From positions 248,001-312,000 of the forward strand of contig NZ_OZ026458.1 in the NCBI RefSeq assembly GCF_964019625.1: a DNA stretch of 64,000 nucleotides, given 5' to 3'. The notes beneath the pieces are model-generated. The model made no database searches, was not told the origin of the DNA, and saw nothing but the letters and a program-made list of their open reading frames with translations. Source of the stretch: Spiroplasma endosymbiont of Diplazon laetatorius. Its GTDB lineage: Bacteria > Bacillota_I > Bacilli_A > Mycoplasmatales > Mycoplasmataceae. Position numbers and translations under genes: made by a program. Shown piece after piece: positions 6,005-47,336 of the stretch; the first letter of the stretch is position 1, and every line of letters starts with the position of its first letter.

Positions 6005-6051
6005 ATTTTTTTCTAGTAAAATTTTTATGTAGTGTGTTAGAGGGAAAAAAT

Positions 6052-6747
6052 ATGATTGTATTAGAAAACGTTACAAAAAATTTTAATGGCAATTTAGCTA
6101 TTAATGAAGTTAGTTTGAGTATTGAAAAGGGAGAGAATTTAGCTATAATTGGAGCCAATGGTAGTGGTAAAACTACTTTGGTAGAGATGATTTGTGGAAT
6201 TCAAAATCCAACAAGCGGAAAAATAAGTTTTAAAAATGGAATAAATGATATTGTAGGAATTCAATTCCAGGAAGGAAGTTGACCTCCAAAAACTAGACCG
6301 ATTGATTTATTGGAATTTTTCAAAGGTAAAAAATGAAAAGATGAAGAATATGTAAATAAAATATTCAAAATTTTTGAAATTGAAAGTATTTTAAAAAAAG
6401 ATATTAATAAACTTTCTGGTGGGCAAAAACAAAGACTTAATTGTTTTTTGGCCATAATTAATAACCCAACCTTAATAGTTATTGATGAATTGATAACTGG
6501 TTTAGATCTTAAAATGCAAATTAGATTACTTAAGTATTTTCAAACTTTAAAAGAAAAAAAAGAAGTAACCATGATAATTGTTTCACATATTTCAGATGAA
6601 ATAGAATCACTTTGTGATAGGGTTGTTGTTTTAAAAGAAGGAAAAATATTTGAAGACAACAGTTTAAAGGAAATAGTAAAAAACTATAAAAACATAAGAA
6701 ATTATTTAGAAAAATATTTTGATGAGAGCAATGATGAGAATAAATAA
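6052..6747 (+). CDS. ABC transporter ATP-binding protein
   Basis: The 231-residue nucleotide-binding subunit of an ABC transporter. All motifs are present: Walker [10 protein letters not shown] (34-42), Q-loop in IQFQEGS, signature LSGGQKQR, Walker B LIVIDE and switch His in VSHISDE. Two Trp codons are TGA. The ATG at 6052 was chosen because AGAGGG lies just upstream; an in-frame TTG at 6034 has no such site. Its 3' end overlaps the first permease by 17 bp, so the pair is translationally coupled. It resembles exporter-type (drug/lantibiotic) ATPases paired with two ABC-2-like permeases. Cargo unknown. Confidence 0.9.
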
Positions 6748-7597
6748 AGATGCTTTTATAAATTTTTACAGACTTAATATACTTTTCTTTAAAAATATAT
6801 TTAAGGACTATAAAATTTATCTAGTTTCTATTTTAATTCCTTTAGTGTTATCTTTTTTACTGTATTGAATGTGAGGAACTGCTAATTCTAGCGCTATATT
6901 TGCTCCACAAATGTTTGGTTTCATATCTATAGGTTCTATAATAATACCTTTTTATATTTCTATCTTAACTAATGAGTGAAAATCTACAAATTTTTTAAAG
7001 CAAATTAAGTCTTCAAAAATATCTATAATAAGTCTGAATCTATCATTATGTTTAATAAATTCATTCTTTTGTTTATTATCTTCGGTTTTGTGTTTAATTT
7101 TAGCGATGATATCACTTAATTTTATTTATGCTTTTCCAATTAAAATAAGTGTTTTTTCAGACATCGATTGATATATATGATTAGATTATTTTTTAATTAT
7201 ATTATTTGGTTCTTTTTTAATACTATTATCTTTTTTTGTTGTATCAAATTTATTTAAAAATAAGTATTTATCTTTATTTGCAAATATTATTTTGATGATA
7301 GTATTCTTAGTTGGTGGGGACTGTGTTGTTATACCCAACATAACATCTAAAAATCTTTTTGTAATAATCATTCAATATTTAATACCTATCAAATATTATT
7401 TTTGAACCATTTTTATGTTTACATCTTATCAATTCATTGATTCTTATGGTATGGGTAAAATTTTATCAACAAATGATCTAAGCAATCAAAATATTTCTTT
7501 TAATAACATAATAGTGCCAATTATAATGATGTTAATTATGGTTGTTTTGTTTTTGTTAATTTTGAAAAAGATATATGTATGGGGGTATAAAAAATAA
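6731..7597 (+). CDS. ABC transporter permease, first of two
   Basis: A 288-residue, very hydrophobic protein with about six membrane segments, consistent with an ABC-2-type permease. The ATG at 6731 lies inside the end of the ATPase gene. Several TGA codons break the frame under the standard code, and all are read as Trp (for example in LLYWMWG). It ends at TAATG, sharing one base with the start of the next permease. With the ATPase and that permease it should form a heterodimeric exporter. No specific family motif was seen, so the substrate is unknown. Confidence 0.75.
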
Positions 7598-8511
7598 TGG
7601 ATAATTTGAGTTTTAAAAATAGTTTTATAAGAACTATTGGTTTCACTTTTAAAACAACACTAAAATCAATAAAACTATATATTTTTATGTTACTTATACC
7701 AGTATCTTTTTATGTTTTTAGTTATTTATTTATAAGCAATTTTGATTCAAAAATTATAAACCCAGCTATTATGTTATCTAAACTTTTACTACCATCTATT
7801 TTTTCTATTATGGTGATAACAACTTTGATGAATGATTGGAATAAATCGATTTTTATTAAGTATGTTAATATTTTTAAATTGAAAAAATTTCATTTAATGC
7901 TGGCTGTATTTATTGTTTTCTTCTTTCTTAATTTAGCTTTTTTATTATTATTTATTTCAATAACATCTTTTATAGATATTTTTTTAGTTAATAAGTCTAT
8001 GATAAATGCATTAAACTTAAAAACCTATTACATTCTTATTGATCAAAAAAATGTAAACTTTTTAATCAATTTTAGAAGAATAGTTGGAGTGATTTTTGTT
8101 TTTATATTTTCAAGTTTGATAAACTTTCTTATTGGTTATATGATGAGTCATATTTCAAAAAACTTAATATTAGTTCAAATATTAAATATTTTTCTAATAA
8201 GTTTTATATTAATTTTCTCAGATATGTTCATAGATCCAAATGATAGCTTATTTAATAATAATGTAATTTACATATGTTATTTGGTTCCTCAAAAATATTT
8301 AACGTGATTGGTCTATTTATTTTATGCTGATATTGGTACTGACAAGTCTTTTATAAATCTTATAATTTTAAATTTAAGAACCAAGTTGTTTGTAGATAAT
8401 TATGTTTTACCGATTTTGGTGTTATTTGCATATACAATGTTACTTCTGTTTTTAATACCAGGAAATAGAAAATTCCTAATTGAAAGGGTGAAAAAATGAA
8501 AAATTTCTTAA
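7597..8511 (+). CDS. ABC transporter permease, second of two
   Basis: A 304-residue membrane protein with about six hydrophobic segments (first near residues 27-50, last near 270-290). It starts in a TAATG overlap with the preceding permease. A TGA at 8305 is Trp. A second TGA at 8497 must also be Trp, so the protein extends to TAA at 8511 and overlaps the following lipoprotein start (8496) by 16 bp. Probable partner of the 6731 permease in one exporter. The two permeases have the same layout but little obvious sequence identity. Confidence 0.75.
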
Positions 8512-9593
8512 AAATAATAGCATCTTTTAATTTGTTTGTTCTTCCTCTTTTTTCTGTTGTTTCTTGTACAACACGAAATAATTTAGAATCTAAAATAAAT
8601 AAAATAATAAAACACAGAGAAATACCCACAGATTATAGATATTTAAATAATTGAAACGAATTGCTAATTTCTAACTCGCTTTATTTGAATAATTATAATA
8701 TGGAATATAATTGGGCTGTAAAACTTGAAGCCGAAAAATGATTTATGGAAGAAAATGAGAATTTAAAAAATTATTTAACCCCAAAAGAAACTAAAATTAT
8801 TGAAGGTGATGATTATAACGATAAAATACTTATTGATTTAGAATTTCCATATTCGAATGATCCAAAGGTTCCTTTCTCTGGTTCAACAGTTATAGCATCA
8901 ACTTTAATGGAAGAAGAGTTTTTACAGATATATAATTACAAAAATTTAGTAAATTTAGGTTATGAGATAAAAGTTGAATCTTCAAATAAAGATGTAATAA
9001 ATGTTATTTCTCAACCTGATGAAAATGGTGTTTTTTTCTTCAAGGGTACAAAAGAACAAGGTGATGCAATATTAAAAATTGAAGCAAATCCAAAGAGTCT
9101 TAACCAGAATCTACCTACATTAAATAATGAAATAAAAGTATATAACAGAAGTAATAAGGATAATGGTTTCTTGCAATGAAGAACATATCAATATGTAAAA
9201 TATGTATATTCAAAAACGGATAGTTTTACATTGTTGGTGGCATGTTACCTTGTTCAAATATATTCTCAAATGATGTACAATGCATCTTACAATACAAATC
9301 CAAATATAAGTGGAAAAATGCCTCTGTTAGATGAAAAAATGATTGATATGTTATATTGTGCTTCTGAATATAATATGTTTATTAATTATTTAGAATTCTG
9401 ACCTGCTGCAGATAGTCCAATAGGTGGATATGGTTTTTATTTCTCATTTAATTTCTATGTTCATCCAAGTTATAAAAGTGGAACCGGAAAAGCATTGCAA
9501 AGTTCACCATTGGCTGAAATAAACCCTTTATTAAAAGATTTTTCAAAAGAAACTTTTAATTTATACAACGATTTGAAAGGAGAGGAAAAATAA
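8496..9593 (+). CDS. Lipoprotein of unknown function
   Basis: A 365-residue surface lipoprotein. The signal peptide of ~23 residues ends in a lipobox-like FSVVSC with Cys24 as the predicted lipidation site. Residues ~105-190 are rich in beta-strand-like patterns (for example GYEIKVESSNKDVINV), suggesting an Ig-like domain. The C-terminal half is rich in Tyr and Asn. GAAAGGGTG lies upstream, within the end of the permease gene. It ends immediately before the GH85 gene with no gap, so the two lipoproteins are probably made together and may act together on the cell surface. No family recognised. Confidence 0.8.
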
Positions 9594-12206
9594 ATGAAAA
9601 AATTATTAACTTTATTCATGGTAACTGCAGTTACAACCTCTTCTGTAATCACGGTGTCTTCTTGCAGTATTGGAGAAACCTCTACCAGACCATACATATC
9701 AAAATTACCAGATTTTGATTGATCGAACGGTTCAACAGGATATGATTTAGATTTTGATCCTCTCAATAAAGAGTTTGTAATCGAAGAAGATAATTTTTTA
9801 GACACTAATTCAATTATTCAACCAAATTTCGTTGGTAAATATTTTGATTATGATACTTTGACAACAAATTTTAAAGAAACACCATCATTAAAAAAACAAG
9901 CCACTACAGGTGTTCCGATAAATAAAATATATTCATCCGGAAATGATTGAGCTGATTTTGGTGTTACTTCAAAGGCTAGAAAAGGATTGAAAGCAAACAC
10001 AATTTTAAATTGAAATGATGGTAAAGATATTGATTTAAAGTATGGTTTTGCAAATAAAGAATTAAATCACAGAACTAAAACTGCTCTAAAAGCAGTTTCA
10101 ACACAAGATGAAAGAATTTCTTTTGCTGATATTAGGGACCACTCTAGAGTAAATGGTTCTTATCAAAATACAAATATCGGAACTAAAAACCCATTTGAAA
10201 AATCAGTTTCAAATTTTCAGTATAGAGATTATATTTTTGATTGAGGTCAACACGGAAATATAGCTCCTCCTGCAGCGGATATGATAGATGCTGCGCATAC
10301 AAACGGTACTCCTATTTATGGGTTGATATTCTTATCTGGTTATGGAGGTCTTCAAAGAGAAGATGTAAAAGATTTCACTCGCAAAAATGCAGATGGAACA
10401 TATCAGCTTGTAGATATACTAATTGAAATGGCAATAACCTATGGTTTTGATGGATGATTTTTTAATGATGAAGCAAATGGTGGTTGACCCAACGGAACAA
10501 TAACACCTGCAAATTTTTCTTATGATATAATAAAACAATTTAATGCTAAGAAAAATAAAAGTAATGATCCAAAAGTCAAAAAATTAAACATCGCTTATTA
10601 TAGAGATAGTGGAACTTTGAAAACACTTAATAACACACCAACTTTTGGTGATTTTGCAAGAATGAGTGAATACAGTGATATTTTACAAACAGATTTCAGA
10701 GTTAAACCAAATGAAAACAAAGATTATATAAAAACAAACAATGTTGATAGTAAAAAAGTTCACAGTTTAGTGGAATTGGCAGGAATGTATTCTTTTGTTG
10801 GGAATTTCGATTGAAGACAATATATTTATGGTTTAGATGAAAATAATAACGATCCAACCAATCCTATTTATAATAAAGAAATTTACCAATCTGTAACTTC
10901 GTTTTCTGGAGCTGGCGGAGGTCAATTTGGAAGTGAGGCTCTTGAAATACTTAACTCAAATAACTCTTTAAAATCAAAAAATTATAAAAGTAAGGTTGAG
11001 TCATTTATTTATGCTCAACAAGTAAGTAATTTATATGATAATTATATATTTTCTGGATTGAATGGAGGTCTGTCTGAAAAGGATTCTGGATCAATTTCTC
11101 CTTTAGTACAAAATCCAAGAAATATGATCCAAGCAGATCCTAGGATAGATGTTGGTAATCAAAAATTAGAAGATGAAAATGATATTTTCAAAAACTTATA
11201 TGATTTTAAAAATAATGGAGGTTATGTTTCTACTAGTTTTGGAATCGGAGATGTAGTTCAAGAGTATACAATTATAAATGATGAAAACTTCCAAGATAAA
11301 AATAGTATCAAAACTAATTTCTCTCTTGGGAATGGTTCATATTTTTATGAAAGAAATGCAAACGGTAAAATAACAAGTAAGTTAGAAGGTTATCCTTGAA
11401 CTAACAGAAGATTTACTGATTTAGCACAAACATATAACTTTGATATAAAGAAGGACAAAAAAAACTTACCTATTGACCAAGGCATTAATGGTTTTTATGA
11501 TTACTATGAACCTTATGTAAAAGGTAATTCTTTATCTATTGGTTCTATTCTTAATATGGATGGTTCTATTTCTGAAGCTAATTGAAAAAGTGGAAGTTAT
11601 GATTGAAATATTATGGGTTCAAATTTAGAAAAAGGAAATTATTCTTTATCTTTTAATGTTAAAACTTCAAATGAGAATCTAAATATTGAAAATGATTTAA
11701 AAATACTTACCACATATACTAAAGATGGTGTTAATGAACAAACAGAATATTACACACCTAAAGTTAAAGAACTTAGTGATGGTTGATATAATATCTCAAC
11801 AGAAATATCTGCAACTGAAAATAAAAAAATTGCTAAGATGGGAATACAAATAAATCCAAAAATTGATGCAAAATTCAAATTTAATGTTGGTGAGTTTAAT
11901 ATTGAAAAAGAAAAACTCGAAAAAGAAAACACTGTAGTTTCAGATATAAATTCAGAAGCTGTAATTAAAAGAGATGATCAAACTATAAATGTGAGAATGA
12001 ATTGACGATCAAATCAAAATAAATCAGATTATTATGAAATATACTATAAATATGATGATAAATGATTTAGAGTTGGTGAATCAAGTATAGAATCTTTTTA
12101 TGTTGCTAACTTAAAATATGAAAGCGATATAGTACAGTTTGGTATTAAACCTGTAAATTCTGGTAATGATAATCAAAAAATACAGACATTTAAATTGAAA
12201 ATTTAG
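9594..12206 (+). CDS. GH85 endo-beta-N-acetylglucosaminidase lipoprotein
   Basis: Cleaves the chitobiose core (GlcNAc-beta1,4-GlcNAc) of N-linked glycans, releasing oligosaccharides from host glycoproteins. It has 870 residues with a lipobox ending SVITVSSC (Cys24), so it is anchored outside the membrane. The GH85 core spans about residues 110-480: YIFDWGQHG, NGTPIYGLIF and YGFDGWFFNDE. The last carries the family's catalytic N-x-E pair (N291 to position the oxazoline, E293 as acid/base). The region after ~residue 630 is beta-rich and may bind carbohydrate. Many TGA codons are Trp. It has a ribosome site (AAGGAGAGG) and is last in a five-gene run with an ABC exporter. Host-glycan foraging or masking is inferred. 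Confidence 0.88.
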
Positions 12207-39230: not shown

Positions 39231-41231
39231 ATGGCTGATAAAATTACATTGGAAAATACTCAAGAAGTAAATATCCAAAATCAAAACAAAGATATCAAAC
39301 CAGAATTCAAAACTAAAAGAAGTGGGAAATCATTCTTTGCAATAATATTCCATTACTTGAAAAGACATCCAATGATAGGTATTTTTTTGGTAGTACTTAC
39401 ATTGGCTTCTTCCGTTACTAGTGTTTTGAGTCCAAAAATTATAGAAAATATTATGAGTATATTAACTGCTCCAACAAGAATTAGTTCAGCAATTGCTGGA
39501 GAAACAAAACCTCCTGTAAATTCAGTTGAGGATATTAATAATATTCTTTGAGCAATAACTAGTGGTCCTAAAATAACTGCCCATGGAGATGGTACAGATT
39601 GAAAAAATTTTTACTACACAACTAGTTTATTTGGATTTGATCTTCAATGACAAGATTGAATCTATGTTCAATTAGGATTATTTGGTTCATTGGCAATATT
39701 TACGTTTGCATCAAACTTTATTGCTGGAATTATGGGTAAAAACATCGAAATTGAATTAAGAAATAAAACTCTTGAAAGACTTGTTAAACAAGACATGAGT
39801 TATTATTCAGATAAAAAAATTGGTGAAATTTTAACAAAAATAGTTTCAGACACTCAAATAATCGGTGATCAAGCACAACAAGTACCAGTTACAATGTTGG
39901 GTGCTGCTTTTACATTCTTTGGGGCATTAATAATGATGTTTACAATAAATATATATCTAACTGTTGTTGTAATTATAACAATGGCAATTATTGTGACTTC
40001 AATATTCTCTACATTTGGAATAGTTAAAAAAGCTGCTTTCAAAACAAGAGACTCAATTACAAATATAAATGGAGATGTTACTGATAGAATTGCTACAGTA
40101 AGATTGATTAAAGCTTCTGGAACAGAAAATTATGAAACAGAAAGATTTAAAGAAATACACAAAGATTACTTTAAAAAATCAAGTAGTTTAATTAAGTTAC
40201 AATCAACAGTTATTACAGTTTTGGTAGCTGGTGTAAGTTCAATACAAATGATTATTGTTATTGCTGCTGCTATCAAATGACACGATAACCCAGGAACATT
40301 ATCTATTGTATTAACTTCATTTATATCTTCTGTTGGAACAATGGTTGGACCAATTATGCAAGTTGCAAGATTACAAGCTGGATTAATCCAAGCCTCAACT
40401 TCTGCAGTAAGAATTAATGAAATACTTGGAGCAAAATCAAAAATTGATCCACATTATAATCCTGAAGAAGGAATACATATTGAAAATATTGACAAAGACA
40501 TCGTATTTAAAGATGTTGAGTTTAGATATCCAGAAAAACCAGAAAAAGTTATTATTCCTCAATTCTCATTTACATTCGAACATGGAAAATCATATGCGTT
40601 TGTTGGTGAAACAGGAGCTGGTAAATCTACAATAGCTAAATTATTATTAAGATTCTATGATCCTTATAAAGGACAAGTTTTAATAAATGAAAAATATGAC
40701 TTAAAAGATGTAAACTTATCAAGTTACTTAGATAAAGTAGGTTATGTTGAACAAGAACCTCAAATCTTATTTGGAGATGTTTTAGATAACATTAAATATG
40801 GTAGATTTGATGCAACTGATGAAGAAGCTATTGAAGCTGCTAAATTAGCTGAACTACATGATTTAGTTATGACTTGACCAGAAGGATATAAAACAATTCT
40901 TGGTGAACGTGGATTTATGTTATCTGGTGGTCAAAAACAAAGACTTGTTATTGCAAGAATGTTCTTAAAAGACCCACAATTATTAATCTTAGACGAAGCA
41001 ACAAGTGCTTTAGATAATATTGTTGAAAAAGAAATTCAAGCAAAATTGGATAGCTTAATGAAAGGTAGAACAACAGTTACTATCGCTCACAGATTAAGTA
41101 CTATCAAAAATGTTGATCAAATTATAGTACTTGCACCAGAAAAAGGAATAGCTCAAACTGGAACTTTCAATGAATTGAAAAACAAAGAGGGACATTTCAA
41201 AAATCTTTATGATGCAGGTCTAATGGGATAA
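39231..41231 (+). CDS. ABC exporter, fused membrane and ATPase domains (MsbA/LmrA type)
   Basis: A 666-residue half-transporter with six membrane spans (about residues 40-390) and a C-terminal ATPase: Walker [10 protein letters not shown] (~459), Q-loop, signature LSGGQKQR (~564), Walker [13 protein letters not shown] and switch His in IAHRLST. A polar loop between the first two spans (~85-140) is longer than usual. As a homodimer it probably exports lipids, peptides or drugs; the substrate is unknown. Several TGA codons are Trp. It has its own extended -10 promoter and ends in a strong terminator. Confidence 0.92.
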
Positions 41232-41260
41232 AAAAAGAACTTTATAAGTTCTTTTTTTTT
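41231..41260 (+). terminator. Terminator after ABC exporter
   Basis: A 12-bp stem (AAAAAAGAACTT/AAGTTCTTTTTT) with a short loop and T10 run. Confidence 0.85.
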
Positions 41261-41319
41261 TAAACACTTTTATGCTGAGATAATATATAATTATTATGAA
41301 AGAAAAAAAGGGTAAAAAA

Positions 41320-42987
41320 ATGAAGTTTTTAATTAAAGTTATGTCCATAGCTATGCCAATCTCTGTGGTTGGTTCAAATCCAATAATCAACGAAATGGTA
41401 GAAATCAATACAAGAATCGTTAAAGATGATTTAAGTAATTTTGATAACAATTCTTATTCTATACATGGTATAGAATATCATAAGGGTTGAGAAGAAGATA
41501 TTTTCTTACAAATATCTGATTCATTTTCACAAAAAAATCAACATAATGAGGAACAATTATTTATTAATTTACACAATTATGGTAAAGAGTGATTTATTAT
41601 AAGAGGTAATAATTTTTCTGTTCCAAAAGTTGGTAAATATAATAGATACAAAATAAATATTCAAGCAAATGAAAAAAATCCTTTTTATAAAGGTGCAACA
41701 ACTTTTGAATTAAAGATATGAAATGATGGTGAAAAATTAGATATATTTGAAGAATATGATGACTTTATAAATAACCAGTATTTTAAAGAAAATTTTTCTT
41801 TAAGTAATTCACCTGAAAAAGAAATTAACAACATATTTATTGAAGAATTGGTTAAGTTCATTAATAGAAGTTCTTTTGTAGGTAATGGATATGATGCTGA
41901 ATTATTAAAAGATGCATGAGAAAATGGAGAATTAATAATAAAAAACAGCTTAGTAACTGATAATGATTTTTATTCAATTTATGAATTTGAACTTTATTCT
42001 ATAGAAAGTAAGTGATCAAAATTATTGGTTTCTGGTAAAAAACTTGAGTTTGAAAATGTAAAATTAGTAAAAAGACAAAAAACATCATTTTCACATTTAC
42101 AAGATGTTTTAAATGATAAAAAAATGGAAAACTTTGAAATAAATAATGATAACTATAATGATGATTACATAATCGATAAAAATATAGATATTATTGATGA
42201 TTATTTCAATAAAAATCCAAATAATACAATTTATAAGGATGTTGGTAATTTTTTATCTACATATAGAAGTCAATATGATATTTCTGTAAGTGAAGAAAAA
42301 GAAATTAAAGATAAAAACTACACAAGTACAAAAAATTATTATTTTGTCAAAAGAACATATGAGTTTATACCAAATAAAAATAATAATATTTTTATAAATA
42401 ATTCCGTTTTATCTATAGATTTCGTTTATAAAATAGATTATAAAGATGAAGTTTATAATTTTAATTCTCTTGAACAAAAACACACCATGACTGCAAAATC
42501 AAGTAAAATTGTTAAATATAAAATGACTAGTAAAGTTATGAATATAGATTTTAAAAACATAAAGGAAGTTGATAACTTTGAACAACTAATTTATAGATAT
42601 TCAGAAGTAAAGTTTGACTTTAAAAGTTCTTATAAAGTTCAAAACAAAAAGATTACTGAGTGTAATTTTATTTATGATGGATTTAAAAATACTTCAACTA
42701 AAGGTCACAAAGCAAAATGCAAAGAAGCAAAACAAAATGAATCTTTAAAATTAACTGATTTAAAAGATTCAACCGAAAAAAAACCATACAATTTAAATTT
42801 ACTACATAAAAACGAAGCTTGATATATTGCAGACTGAAACACTAATTCCTCAACTAAAGCTAAAATTTGATATGAAGGTACTAAAATTTTCTACATAATT
42901 GAATCAAACATTTATTTATATAAAAGTGGTAGTGAAATGCAAACTGATTTTGATTTTAAATTAAAATCTTTAACATTAAAAAAATAA
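41320..42987 (+). CDS. Large secreted protein of unknown function
   Basis: Function not recognised. It has 555 residues beginning with a signal-like segment (KFLIKVMSIAMPISVVGSNP) without a lipobox Cys, so probably secreted or membrane-tethered by an uncleaved signal. The rest is hydrophilic, Asn/Lys/Asp-rich and beta-patterned, with at least two cysteines (ECNF, AKCKEA). The ATG at 41320 with AGGGT is preferred; an in-frame ATG at 41296 sits right behind a -10 box. It ends immediately before a large permease-like gene (TAAATG), so both are one operon and this protein may work with that transporter. Confidence 0.7.
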
Positions 42988-44820
42988 ATGATACTATACA
43001 AATTAACATTTAAAGAATACTTTACAAATATAAAAAATAATATTATGAACCTAATCTTTTTGCTATTAATGGTTTTTTTGAGTATTATTTTATCTATTTT
43101 GGAAAATAACAATAATTATGGAGAAAATCTGTTTGCTATTTATCAAATAATTACATTTTCAATGGTTTTATTATTTAATATTATAATTCTGATTAACTAT
43201 TTATACACAGAGCTTATTTATAAAACAAAAAACAATATTATAAATCAAGAAGTGAGACACAAAATAAAAGTAGTAAAAATTTATACAAGAAAATTGAGTT
43301 TAGCTTTTGTGATACTTTTAATAGTTAACTTAAATTACTTGCTTGCAGAAATAATCATTTGATCTTTGACTGCGCCTTTTTATAGTTTTTATGCTCAAAT
43401 TATAATCTTCAAGTATATATCTATTATGTTTTTGGACATATTAATAATAAGCTTTTTGTCTTCTTTATTTATTCTTGGTCAAGAAATAGTAGCTATTATA
43501 TTTTGTCTTTTAATTTTTATGAGTTTTTCTTTCAAAAGTATTGCGTCGAATCCGTCGTTCAATTCTGAAATAAAAAATGTTAATTTTCAAAAACAATATG
43601 AAAATAAAAAAATAAAAAATTATGATATAGCTTATTCAAATTATAATGTAAGTAAACTTTTAGAATGATCAATAAAAATATATGAATTGAAAGAAAATAA
43701 TCGTATATTTTCTTCAATGATTGAAAAACCAAAAGAATTTATCGAACTCTTTGATGAAGATTTTGTTTTAGTTTCTTCAAATGGGGATAGATTAGATAAA
43801 TATAGTGATAACTATGTTAATATCTTTTGATACTTTTTATTAGATTCTAATATATCAACAAATGTGGTAGATTCTTGAAAATGAAATACGTTTGATGAAT
43901 TTAAAATTCAATTAAGAGATATGAATGATATAGATTTAAATAATCCATATAAATGAATGCTGGATTTACAATTTTTAATAAATAACTTATCTTCATATGA
44001 ACCGATAGAAGATGATTCATACATTGAAGATCTTGGTTTAAAAACAGGCCCTAAAGGTTACGATGTAAGAAAAATTTATAAATTAATGATAAAAAATTTA
44101 AATATTTTATCTAATCAAAAATATGGATCTTCTTCTTTAGAAGATATAGCAGAGATTAGACAAATAATAATGCTTTCTTATGAATTATTTTTAGATGAAT
44201 TTACTAATAATAAAAATATTCATGGAATAAATTGGGGTTATAGAACATTTTCAGGGCTAGATGAACCAAATAATGCTATAAACGGTTATAAGTGAGGTGC
44301 TGAAAGAGAAATATATTCAAACAAAACCTCTATATCATATGGTAATAACGAAATATATTCTGGAATTATGCAAATGATAGCGCTATCAAAAAATATTCCA
44401 AATATGAATGAATTTTATGAATGATCAGAATACAATATTTTTTCAAATGAAATTTCAAATAGATATATTAAATCAACTAGGTTAAATTATTACTTTAATC
44501 CATACGCATCTATAAACTACATATCCAACTTTGGATTTTATACAAACCCAACTAGTGAAAATATAAACAATAGAAGTAAAGGCGATAAAATAATGGGAAA
44601 AGGTTTTCTGGCCAATAATTATATTTATTTCGACTATAAAAATAAAAACAACGCTAGTGTTTTTGATTTGGAAAGAAATGATTGAGAAGATGGAACTTTA
44701 AAGGTTGTAAAAAAAGTACAAATAATTAGTCCTTGATTAATTTATTTTGAATGAATTTTAATTGATACAATTGCTTTATTTTTATCTTATCGATTTTTCA
44801 AAAAGAAAACAATTATATAA
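42988..44820 (+). CDS. Permease-like membrane protein with very large soluble domain (A)
   Basis: A 610-residue protein. Four or five membrane segments lie in the first ~185 residues, a large hydrophilic domain at ~190-580 and one final span (~583-603). ABC-2-type permeases usually lack a ~390-residue insert of this kind. It is paralogous to the next gene: both start with a YxLK/TFKEYF-type helix, and near the end of the soluble domain share an NYY-x-NP-x-A pattern (LNYYFNPYAS against INYYLNPLAG). About ten TGA codons are Trp. It has no gap to the secreted-protein gene and is 12 bp before its paralog. Function unknown; export or adhesion is conjecture. Confidence 0.7.
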
Positions 44821-44832
44821 GGAGGACAAAAA

Positions 44833-46548
44833 ATGAGAATATATTTATACAGTTTAAAAGATATTTTTTTAAAAAAAAGCTCTATTTTATGCTCGCTTAT
44901 TTTTCTATTTATATCAATATTTTTTTCAATCATTGATATTTATTTAGATATAGATAGGTATTCGACCACTCAAATAATAGTTATGATGACCGGTTCTGGT
45001 GCTGGATTTTTAAGTGTTTGAGTTTTTCTTGTACTACACTTTTATGAAGAATTCTACAAAAAAAGTGAAAATGGAACTTTAAATTTAGAAATTAGACTTA
45101 AAATTAATGCATTTAACATTTTTGCAAGAAGAATCATAACTTCTATGATTTGAATGATTTCTTTATATTTAATAACTATGACTTTTGAAGTTATTATAAG
45201 ATCTTCACTCACTTTTAACTTTTGGTATTATTATTCGACTATAATTTCAAAGTACTTGACGGGATTGATGATTAATTTTGTCATTATATGCTTATTAACT
45301 GTATGTTTTTCTTGGAGAAAAATAGTTTTAGCGATTATTTCTTCTTTTATTTTGTCTGTTTTATATTTGGCAGGAGATTTCGTTGCAAACCCCCTTACTT
45401 TGAAAAAAATAGATAATAATGACGATGACTGAACTGATTTTGGAAATTTTGCCTATAACGAACTTAAACTTAACTATAGAATCACCATTTCAGAAATGGC
45501 ATTGAAATTAAAAGAAACTAACAATACTTTTAGAGATATGTGTGATAATCCAGAAAAATTAATTGAACTATACAACTCCATTAACATTAATTATGGAGGA
45601 GTAGAAACAATAGTTGATTGAAAGAAAGATGAAAATGAAAACACAAATATGAGTAAGTTATTCTTCTATATTTGAAAATCAGGTTACAGTATTAATTTAG
45701 AAGATATAGATAAGATTTATTATATTAAAGCATCTATTGTTAAAGATAAAAAAATCACAAAAAACCCATTCAATTGAATGGAAGACTCAAAAAAACACTT
45801 ATATAGTAAATACAATAGATTTGATAATATTATAGAAGCTTATAATTTTATGTTTAAAGAAATTGATGGAATGAAAAAAAGTGATGGAAGTCAATATACC
45901 AAAAAAGAAATAAAAGAAATAAAAGAAATTATTAATTTAGCAACTTATTCATTTAATTTTGGTTCGATACTTAAAAACAACTTTATCTACTCTCAATATG
46001 AGAATTTAATTACTATCTCAGAATCTGATAGATTATATGCTTATAAAGATGGTGAACAATTAAGTATGGATTATTTTTTAGGTGAATTATTTAATCAAGT
46101 CATGGACTGTGTTATGTCTACAAGAATTTTCTCGTTTTCAGAATTAGTACCTAATGCTGAATTTACAATTTATTCTGACAAAATTAGATCTGAATACTCT
46201 AGATTAATGAAAATAAATTATTATTTAAATCCTCTTGCAGGTATTTTATATTTGAAAAATTACGGGGTTTCAAGTAAAGATGGATACTCATTTTCTGATA
46301 ATTTTTCTGGTATGGGGAGCACTTCCTTATCTTATGGTGGAAGAACTAAAGTAGTGCGAATTAAAAATAAAAATATATTAACTGACTCTGATTTTGATAT
46401 AAATCAAAATGACTTTTATGATAATGTATCTTTTGAAATAGAAGATGTTTTAATTAACAAATGAATAATTTTTATAGAACAGTTGTTGTGAACGGCGTTA
46501 ATATTTTATATAACATCAATAACTTGAAAAAGAAAATTAATAGTATAG
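44833..46548 (+). CDS. Permease-like membrane protein with very large soluble domain (B)
   Basis: A 571-residue paralog of the preceding gene with the same layout: about five spans in residues 1-190, a soluble domain (~195-545) and a terminal span. TGA=Trp codons occur throughout; two near the end (46486, 46525) mean the protein runs to TAG 46548, past an apparent stop at 46464. AGGAGG precedes the ATG. It ends 11 bp before an ABC ATPase, so A, B and that ATPase plausibly form one heterodimeric ABC system whose extracellular or cytoplasmic domain is unusually large. The sidedness of that domain is not determined. Confidence 0.7.
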
Positions 46549-46559
46549 GAGAAAGAAAT

Positions 46560-47300
46560 ATGAATTTTAATGTATCTAATGTAACTAAAAAATTTAAAGA
46601 GAACGGAATTGAAAATATAAATGTAAATTTCGAATCTAGTGACATTGTTGGTTTTGTTGGCCCTAACGGAGCTGGTAAAACAACTACAATGAAGTCTATA
46701 TTTGGTGAATATAAATTAGATTCTGGTCAAATAACTTATGGGGGTAAGAAATTTTCTGATTGTGATCCTTCAAAAGTAATATTCTTAACAGATCAAACAC
46801 AGCTACCACAATTTTATAAAGTTAAAGATTACATATTGTGAACAGGAGCTTTATACAAACTCTCAAAGGAACAAATTCTAGAAAGAAGCGACTTTCTATT
46901 AAACTCTTTTAATTTAAGTGAAATAAAAAATAAGAAAATTAAAGAATTATCTTTAGGTATGCAAAAAAAATTAAGCATAGTTTTAGCTTTAATGGCTAAA
47001 CCTGAAATAATATTTATGGATGAACCTACAGCAAATCTTGATGTTGATGCAAGACAAGAAATTTTAGAGATAATAAGAAATCTAAATGAAAAAGGGGTTG
47101 GATTTTTTATTACTACTCACATAATTGATGAACTAGAAGAAATTATAAATAAACTAGTCATTATTCAAGACGGAAGAATTTTATATAACGACTCTTATGA
47201 TAAAAAAAATAATAAAATATTAGAAATTTATAAGAAAACTACAGTAAAAGAGATAAAACCTATAAATACAAATCTTGAAGATTTGTTCAAAATGAAGTAA
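46560..47300 (+). CDS. ABC transporter ATP-binding protein of the large-domain permease system
   Basis: A 246-residue ATPase: Walker A GPNGAGKTT (34-42), Walker B IIFMDEPTANLD and switch His in TTHIIDE. The signature is LSLGMQKK rather than LSGGQ, a variant also seen in some ABC-2 exporters. One TGA is Trp. AGGAGA precedes the ATG, 11 bp after permease-like protein B. Expected to power the paired large-domain membrane proteins upstream. Confidence 0.9.
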
Positions 47301-47336
47301 AACCTAAAATATTTTTAGGTTTTTTTTTTTTTTTTT
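47301..47336 (+). terminator. Terminator with 17-base T-run
   Basis: A 9-bp stem AACCTAAAA/TTTTAGGTT (47301-47309, 47313-47321) is followed by an uninterrupted T homopolymer of 17 in all. Confidence 0.85.

What the first reader, a model, noticed from the sequence alone, without database searches (positions are those of the whole stretch)
41320..47300. Unusual ABC system: paired permease-like proteins with ~350-390-residue soluble domains plus a secreted protein
Four genes abut or nearly so: a 555-residue secreted protein, two paralogous membrane proteins with large soluble domains and an ATPase with LSLGMQ signature. I recognise no described ABC family with such inserts. The shared pattern near the end of the soluble domain (NYY-x-NP-x-A) supports a common domain of unknown function. 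This is my best candidate for an undescribed system.
Basis: partly seen in the sequence, partly recalled or inferred. Interest (0 to 1): 0.65.

Follow-up and report, generated by a model that had tools for sequence, protein, structure and literature searches.

The report
Spiroplasma ABC transporters with large ectodomains
This four-gene unit is one copy of a large, fast-changing and apparently uncatalogued family of membrane pumps of Spiroplasma-type bacteria that carry a big outside domain and are often made together with a secreted protein, so it is a plausible place to look for how these wall-less bacteria interact with rivals or hosts.

Summary
Window 41320-47300 carries, in one transcription unit closed by two intrinsic terminators, a Sec-type secreted protein (555 aa), two paralogous permeases (610, 571 aa) and an ABC ATPase (246 aa, LSLGMQ). 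The three non-ATPase proteins match no Pfam, NCBIfam, PHROG or PADLOC family above cut-off.

The unit is one member of a large family. Its permeases have five N-terminal TM helices, a 280-620 aa extracellular domain, and one C-terminal TM helix. Members occur in 49 of 60 genomes of the window's own family, up to 16 matches per genome. Weak evidence links the TM part to ABC-2 exporters. About a third of the loci carry a signal-peptide protein beside the pump (Fisher p 4e-5 for the upstream neighbour). The exact four-gene order occurs in one close relative; secreted-permease-ATPase recurs in other genera.

Permeases and secreted protein evolve far faster than their ATPase and neighbours: dN 0.44-0.49 against 0.04-0.12, dS being similar. 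In one species pair the ectodomain changes ten times faster than the TM part.

Best guess: an ABC-2 pump whose ectodomain handles a Sec-exported partner, like a bacteriocin plus its self-protection pump. The architecture is well supported; the function is inference. Both structure predictions failed.

The parts
41228..41261 (+). intrinsic terminator of the preceding ABC exporter gene; upstream border of the unit
   Evidence: hairpin then T-run, -10.5 kcal/mol
41320..42987 (+). secreted protein, 555 aa, Sec-type signal peptide without lipobox cysteine
   Evidence: 37% identical over 438 aa to the secreted protein of genome G052; no paralog in its own genome
41428..41754 (+). N-terminal module (about residues 37-145) shared with secreted proteins of other loci
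   Evidence: hhalign 72% probability, E 3e-5 with L074; 89%, E 2e-6 with G024 protein; decoy modules E 0.1-0.5
42988..44820 (+). permease A, 610 aa: TM1-5, ectodomain, TM6; translation probably coupled to the secreted gene (TAAATG)
43231..43257 (+). NNIINQEVR, cytoplasmic TM2-TM3 loop motif (ABC-2-like) of permease A
   Evidence: glutamate and arginine invariant in the ten-sequence alignment
43558..44703 (+). extracellular domain of permease A (about residues 191-572)
   Evidence: hydropathy and N-in five-TM topology
44485..44508 (+). NYYFNPYA motif near the end of ectodomain A
44833..46548 (+). permease B, 571 aa, same layout; Shine-Dalgarno AGGAGG upstream
45067..45096 (+). ENGTLNLEIR, cytoplasmic TM2-TM3 loop motif of permease B
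45403..46452 (+). extracellular domain of permease B (about residues 191-540)
46216..46239 (+). NYYLNPLA motif near the end of ectodomain B
46560..47300 (+). ABC ATPase, 246 aa; LSLGMQ signature at 46947-46964
   Evidence: PF00005 E 7.4e-26; nearest NCBIfam DrrA 148 bits, lantibiotic protection 142 bits, both below cut-off
47298..47336 (+). intrinsic terminator; downstream border of the unit

Best explanation
The unit encodes an ABC-2-like (exporter-type) transporter. Permeases A and B are probably the two halves of a heterodimeric membrane channel, driven by two copies of the ATPase. Each half carries a large extracellular domain inserted between TM5 and TM6. The secreted protein crosses the membrane by the Sec route on its own signal peptide, so the pump is not needed to translocate it. 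Instead the pump's ectodomains most likely bind this partner (or a product linked to it) on the outer face of the single membrane, and ATP-driven movement releases or dislodges it. The likeliest biological setting is a bacteriocin-like or other secreted effector with a dedicated release or self-protection pump. Shown: gene order, topology by hydropathy, family, linkage to secreted proteins, fast evolution. Supported but weak: kinship with ABC-2. Inferred: heterodimer, binding of the partner, self-protection.
For: One transcription unit with probable translational coupling of secreted protein and permease A. Same three-gene order with a homologous secreted protein (37% identity, E 1e-80) in another genus and with other secreted proteins in Spiroplasma sp. 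TIUS-1 and many genomes. Secreted proteins enriched as the same-strand upstream neighbour: 18 of 74 against 39 of 525, p 4e-5; beside 29 of 78 blocks within 120 bp on either side, including a few false calls. Five TM + ectodomain + one TM with basic C-tail. ABC-2 kinship: relative L048 matches PF12679 at E 1.1e-5 (25.3 of 27.2 bits) and PF01061 at 0.003; family TM profile aligns with a plain 317 aa permease next to a different ABC ATPase (hhalign 90%, E 1.9e-6). ATPase nearest to DrrA and lantibiotic-protection types. Permeases and secreted protein dN 0.44-0.49 against ATPase 0.10 and flanking genes 0.04-0.12 at similar dS; in G050/G052 ectodomain dN 0.11 against 0.011 for TM1-5.
Against: Most loci of the family have no adjacent secreted gene, and permeases of a second system in the same genome, without a secreted neighbour, also evolve fast, so fast evolution alone does not prove co-evolution with the partner. 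The secreted gene is truncated in G007 and deleted in G050 while the transporter stays. A conserved relative of another group of these secreted proteins sits beside a lipoprotein, not a pump, in the same genome. The window's own permeases match no ABC-2 model, and the family TM profile did not align significantly with six of seven permeases tried; the one it did align with has no ABC-2 Pfam match of its own. No toxin or bacteriocin domain was recognised in any secreted protein tested.
Confidence: 0.4

Rival explanations
1. A self-sufficient ABC-2 efflux pump that removes external antimicrobial peptides or lipophilic toxins (for instance from insect hosts) from the membrane; the ectodomain captures the foreign compound, and the secreted gene is a neighbour with a related but separate role.
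For: Nearest ATPase models are drug and lantibiotic-protection types; most copies have no secreted neighbour; several divergent copies per genome; fast ectodomain evolution also in systems without a secreted gene.
Against: Secreted proteins are enriched beside the pumps, and here the secreted gene is probably translationally coupled to permease A.
Confidence: 0.3
2. A dedicated export or surface-assembly machine for the secreted protein: the pump completes its folding, extraction from the membrane or display, and the protein is a surface or host-interaction factor, not a toxin.
For: Gene order and coupling; secreted proteins are multi-module and related modules recur widely in secreted and lipoprotein-like proteins of the group.
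Against: They have ordinary Sec signal peptides; pumps persist where the secreted gene is lost; related secreted proteins occur without a pump.
Confidence: 0.17
3. An importer in which the secreted protein is the substrate-binding protein.
For: A secreted protein, two permeases and an ATPase are the usual number of parts of an importer.
Against: No lipobox to tether it to the cell; permease layout and ATPase relatives are of exporter type; no binding-protein family recognised.
Confidence: 0.05

Closest known systems
ABC-2 exporters of the BcrAB / DrrAB / LanFEG type
   Same: 246 aa ATPase closest to DrrA and lantibiotic-protection models with LSLGMQ signature; separate 6-TM half permeases; TM2-TM3 loop motif resembling that of ABC-2 permeases.
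   Different: Typical members have no large domain between TM5 and TM6 (own knowledge); here it is 280-620 aa. The window's proteins match no ABC-2 permease model.
Lactococcin 972 / streptococcin B loci
   Same: Bacteriocin thought to leave by Sec, encoded with two genes for a putative ABC transporter thought to give immunity (PMC4055356, PMC11796350; those gene functions are unproven there too).
   Different: No match of the proteins tested to Lactococcin_972 or to the associated membrane-protein models. Lcn972 binds the wall precursor lipid II (PMC8538875), which wall-less mollicutes lack (own knowledge). No sequence relation seen.
Mechanotransmission ABC systems (MacB, LolCDE, FtsEX, BceAB)
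   Same: ATPase plus permease with a large outside domain that works on a partner beyond the membrane.
   Different: Those have FtsX-type permeases, 4 or 10 TM helices, with the outside domain between TM1-TM2 or TM7-TM8 (own knowledge).
ABCA and ABCG exporters
   Same: ABC-2 fold with extracellular loops or domains; ABCG has a TM5-TM6 extracellular loop (own knowledge).
   Different: The ABCG loop is only tens of residues; the large ABCA domains follow TM1 and TM7.

Membership tests
ABC transporter (NBD superfamily) | PF00005 with Walker A, signature, Walker B | tested here: met
   PF00005 E 7.4e-26; motifs located
ABC-2 type exporter | six TM helices, N-in, short C-tail in | tested here: met
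   hydropathy: five N-terminal TM, one C-terminal TM, basic C-tail in 86 of 88; prediction from hydropathy, not a structure
ABC-2 type exporter | match to a Pfam ABC2_membrane model | tested here: inconclusive
   window permeases none; relative L048 PF12679 25.3 bits, cut-off 27.2, E 1.1e-5; two relatives match PF12698, best E 4.6e-4
ABC-2 type exporter | ABC-2 (type V) three-dimensional fold | tested here: inconclusive
   AlphaFold model pLDDT 41, four sequences only; Foldseek no match at E below 0.001
Lactococcin 972 system | Lactococcin_972 bacteriocin family | tested here: not met
   no hit for the window's secreted protein in Pfam or NCBIfam, nor for four other secreted proteins in Pfam
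Lactococcin 972 system | bacteriocin-associated integral membrane protein family | tested here: not met
   no NCBIfam hit for permeases A and B or for 34 family members
Lactococcin 972 system (works like) | Sec-secreted protein in operon with ABC genes | tested here: met
FtsX/MacB-type ABC system | ectodomain after TM1, four TM helices | tested here: not met
   ectodomain lies between TM5 and TM6; no FtsX or MacB model hit
ABC importer with binding protein | lipid-anchored or fused substrate-binding protein | tested here: not met
   no lipobox, no binding-protein family
known anti-phage defence system | match to PADLOC models | tested here: not met
   no hit for the secreted protein and both permeases

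The most novel reading that the evidence does not exclude
A mollicute-specific system type in which a rapidly diversifying ABC-2-like pump with a TM5-TM6 ectodomain and a Sec-secreted modular partner form a matched pair, expanded to several copies per genome, mediating competition or host interaction in wall-less bacteria.
Probability: 0.3. Interest if true: 0.75.

Novelty: new variant of a known kind. Interest (0 to 1): 0.5.

Why it matters
No Pfam or NCBIfam model names this permease type above its cut-off among the members tested, although it occurs in 49 of 60 genomes searched in its bacterial family and reaches up to 16 matches in one genome. Its ectodomains, and here its secreted partner, are among the fastest-changing proteins in their neighbourhood while the ATPase stays conserved, which points to a changing partner outside the cell. 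If the partner is the secreted protein, it would be a new kind of dedicated secretion or self-protection pump in bacteria without a cell wall; if it is a host peptide, it would be a defence repertoire of insect symbionts. Either way the family gives a concrete set of gene pairs to test.

Tried and rejected
A sequence-profile search of solved structures gave only chance hits. A common C-terminal domain in all secreted proteins was suspected by eye but not supported by profile comparison between most groups and is left as a suspicion. The idea that lipoproteins paired with related secreted proteins resemble the permease ectodomain was tested and rejected. Genome-collection scans with permease B found no relative; with the ATPase they found three loci, of which L064 (Evansella) is not one of these systems. 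Paper searches found no description of the family. An importer reading was rejected on topology and missing lipobox.

Full report
WHAT IS THERE. The window is base 248001-312000 of a single-contig 979,438-base mollicute genome. In code 4 four genes lie head to tail: a secreted protein (41320-42987, 555 aa), permease A (42988-44820, 610 aa), permease B (44833-46548, 571 aa) and an ATPase (46560-47300, 246 aa). Gaps are 0, 12 and 11 bp. Permease A begins on the base after the secreted gene's stop, without its own Shine-Dalgarno, which suggests coupled translation. Strong terminators close both ends.

ARCHITECTURE. Both permeases have five hydrophobic helices in the first ~190 residues, then about 380 (A) or 350 (B) soluble residues, then one helix and a basic tail. 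With the N-terminus inside, five helices put the soluble part outside. The loop between TM2 and TM3 carries NNIINQEVR / ENGTLNLEIR; the glutamate and arginine are invariant in ten aligned members.

FAMILY. No model in Pfam, NCBIfam, PHROGs or PADLOC matches the secreted protein or the permeases above its cut-off. A first search of 119 relatives found seven genomes; a profile from eight members found 15 of 395 in the class; a profile from 34 members found 49 of 60 genomes in the window's family, with up to 16 matches per genome, and weaker matches in other families of the order. Many of the weak matches are short frames and may be plain ABC-2 permeases; but locus L070, from another family (f5), has two full-length permeases, an ATPase and a secreted gene. 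Named members are in Spiroplasma sp. TIUS-1 and Mesoplasma seiffertii ATCC 49495. In the loci read, 68 of 78 blocks have an ATPase beside the permease and 11 have two or more permeases; in one genome ATPase and permease are fused (L057). In the tree the window's permeases A and B and the single permease of G050/G052 form one clade (support 99), with A and B each pairing with its ortholog in G007.

KINSHIP WITH ABC-2. The evidence is moderate. Relative L048 matches PF12679 at E 1.1e-5, just under the curated cut-off, and PF01061 at 0.003; two relatives match PF12698, best E 4.6e-4. The family's TM profile aligns to a plain 317 aa permease next to another ABC ATPase with 90% probability, though that protein itself has no ABC-2 Pfam hit; its neighbour has a sub-threshold one. 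Six other permeases tried gave no significant alignment. The ATPase is closest to DrrA and lantibiotic-protection models but below their cut-offs.

THE SECRETED PARTNER. The same secreted protein stands before a single permease and an ATPase in G052 (another genus; 37% identity over 438 aa). In G007 it is cut to 124 aa, and in G050 only remnants of its two ends are left, while the transporters stay. It has no paralog in its own genome. Across the loci the same-strand upstream neighbour is a signal-peptide protein without lipobox in 18 of 74 cases against 39 of 525 background genes (p 4e-5). A looser count finds one beside 29 of 78 blocks within 120 bp on either side, including a few false calls such as carbamate kinase. 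These proteins fall into several groups. The N-terminal module of the window's protein is shared with those of L074 and G024. L074 in turn resembles a second group, with an ATAWNAYW C-terminus. Members of that second group also occur away from pumps, beside a lipoprotein, for instance in the window's own genome (L111). A common C-terminal domain for all is a suspicion only.

EVOLUTION. Between G000 and G007, the flanking genes of the unit are 83-94% identical and the ATPase 83%, but the permeases only 43 and 46%, and the remaining N-terminal part of the secreted protein 44%. dS is 0.7-1.3 throughout, so these are orthologs of one age; dN is 0.44-0.49 for permeases and secreted protein, 0.10 for the ATPase, 0.04-0.12 for neighbours. 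Between G050 and G052 the ectodomain has dN 0.11, TM1-5 0.011, the ATPase 0.017. A second system in the same genome, near the ribonucleotide reductase genes and without a secreted neighbour, shows the same tendency more weakly. The ratios remain below one, so the genes are functional but loosely constrained or diversifying.

MECHANISM. The Sec signal means the partner does not need the pump to cross the membrane. I therefore favour a pump that works on the outer face: ectodomains bind the partner or a linked product, and ATP-driven motion releases or dislodges it, as proposed for ABC self-protection in bacteriocin producers. The nearest analogue is the lactococcin 972 type of locus, with a bacteriocin thought to leave by Sec and putative ABC immunity genes (PMC4055356, PMC11796350); membership is rejected because no defining model matches, and its target, lipid II (PMC8538875), should be absent from wall-less mollicutes. 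Binding, heterodimer and self-protection are inference. A pump against host peptides is almost as likely.

LIMITS. Gene calls in relatives are mechanical ORFs, and signal peptides were judged by hydropathy rules of my own. Neighbouring loci from related species are not independent, so the Fisher value is optimistic.

Noticed in passing
window 6034-12206: Another ABC cluster: ATPase, two ABC-2-like permeases of 292 and 304 aa, a 365 aa lipoprotein and an 870 aa lipoprotein with a glycosyl hydrolase family 85 domain (PF03644 E 2.9e-20), possibly a host glycan-cleaving unit.
   Followed up: partly
L111:8295-10701 (own genome about 697,294-699,700): A 393 aa secreted protein of the ATAWN group is paired with a 381 aa lipoprotein; similar pairs occur in several genomes of the genus (L112, L113 twice, L114, L116).
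   Followed up: partly
L053:5217-7593 (G007) and L055:4411-6721 (G042): Members of the pump family lie among several MreB-like genes.
   Followed up: no
L052:6425-11933 (own genome about 105,424-110,932): A second, ATPase-permease-ATPase-permease system sits downstream of the ribonucleotide reductase genes and has counterparts at similar chromosome positions in many genomes of the genus.
   Followed up: partly
L057:4281-6854: ATPase and permease of this family fused in one 857 aa protein.
   Followed up: no
L094, L108, L050: Split or truncated permeases of the family, suggesting birth-and-death evolution.
   Followed up: no
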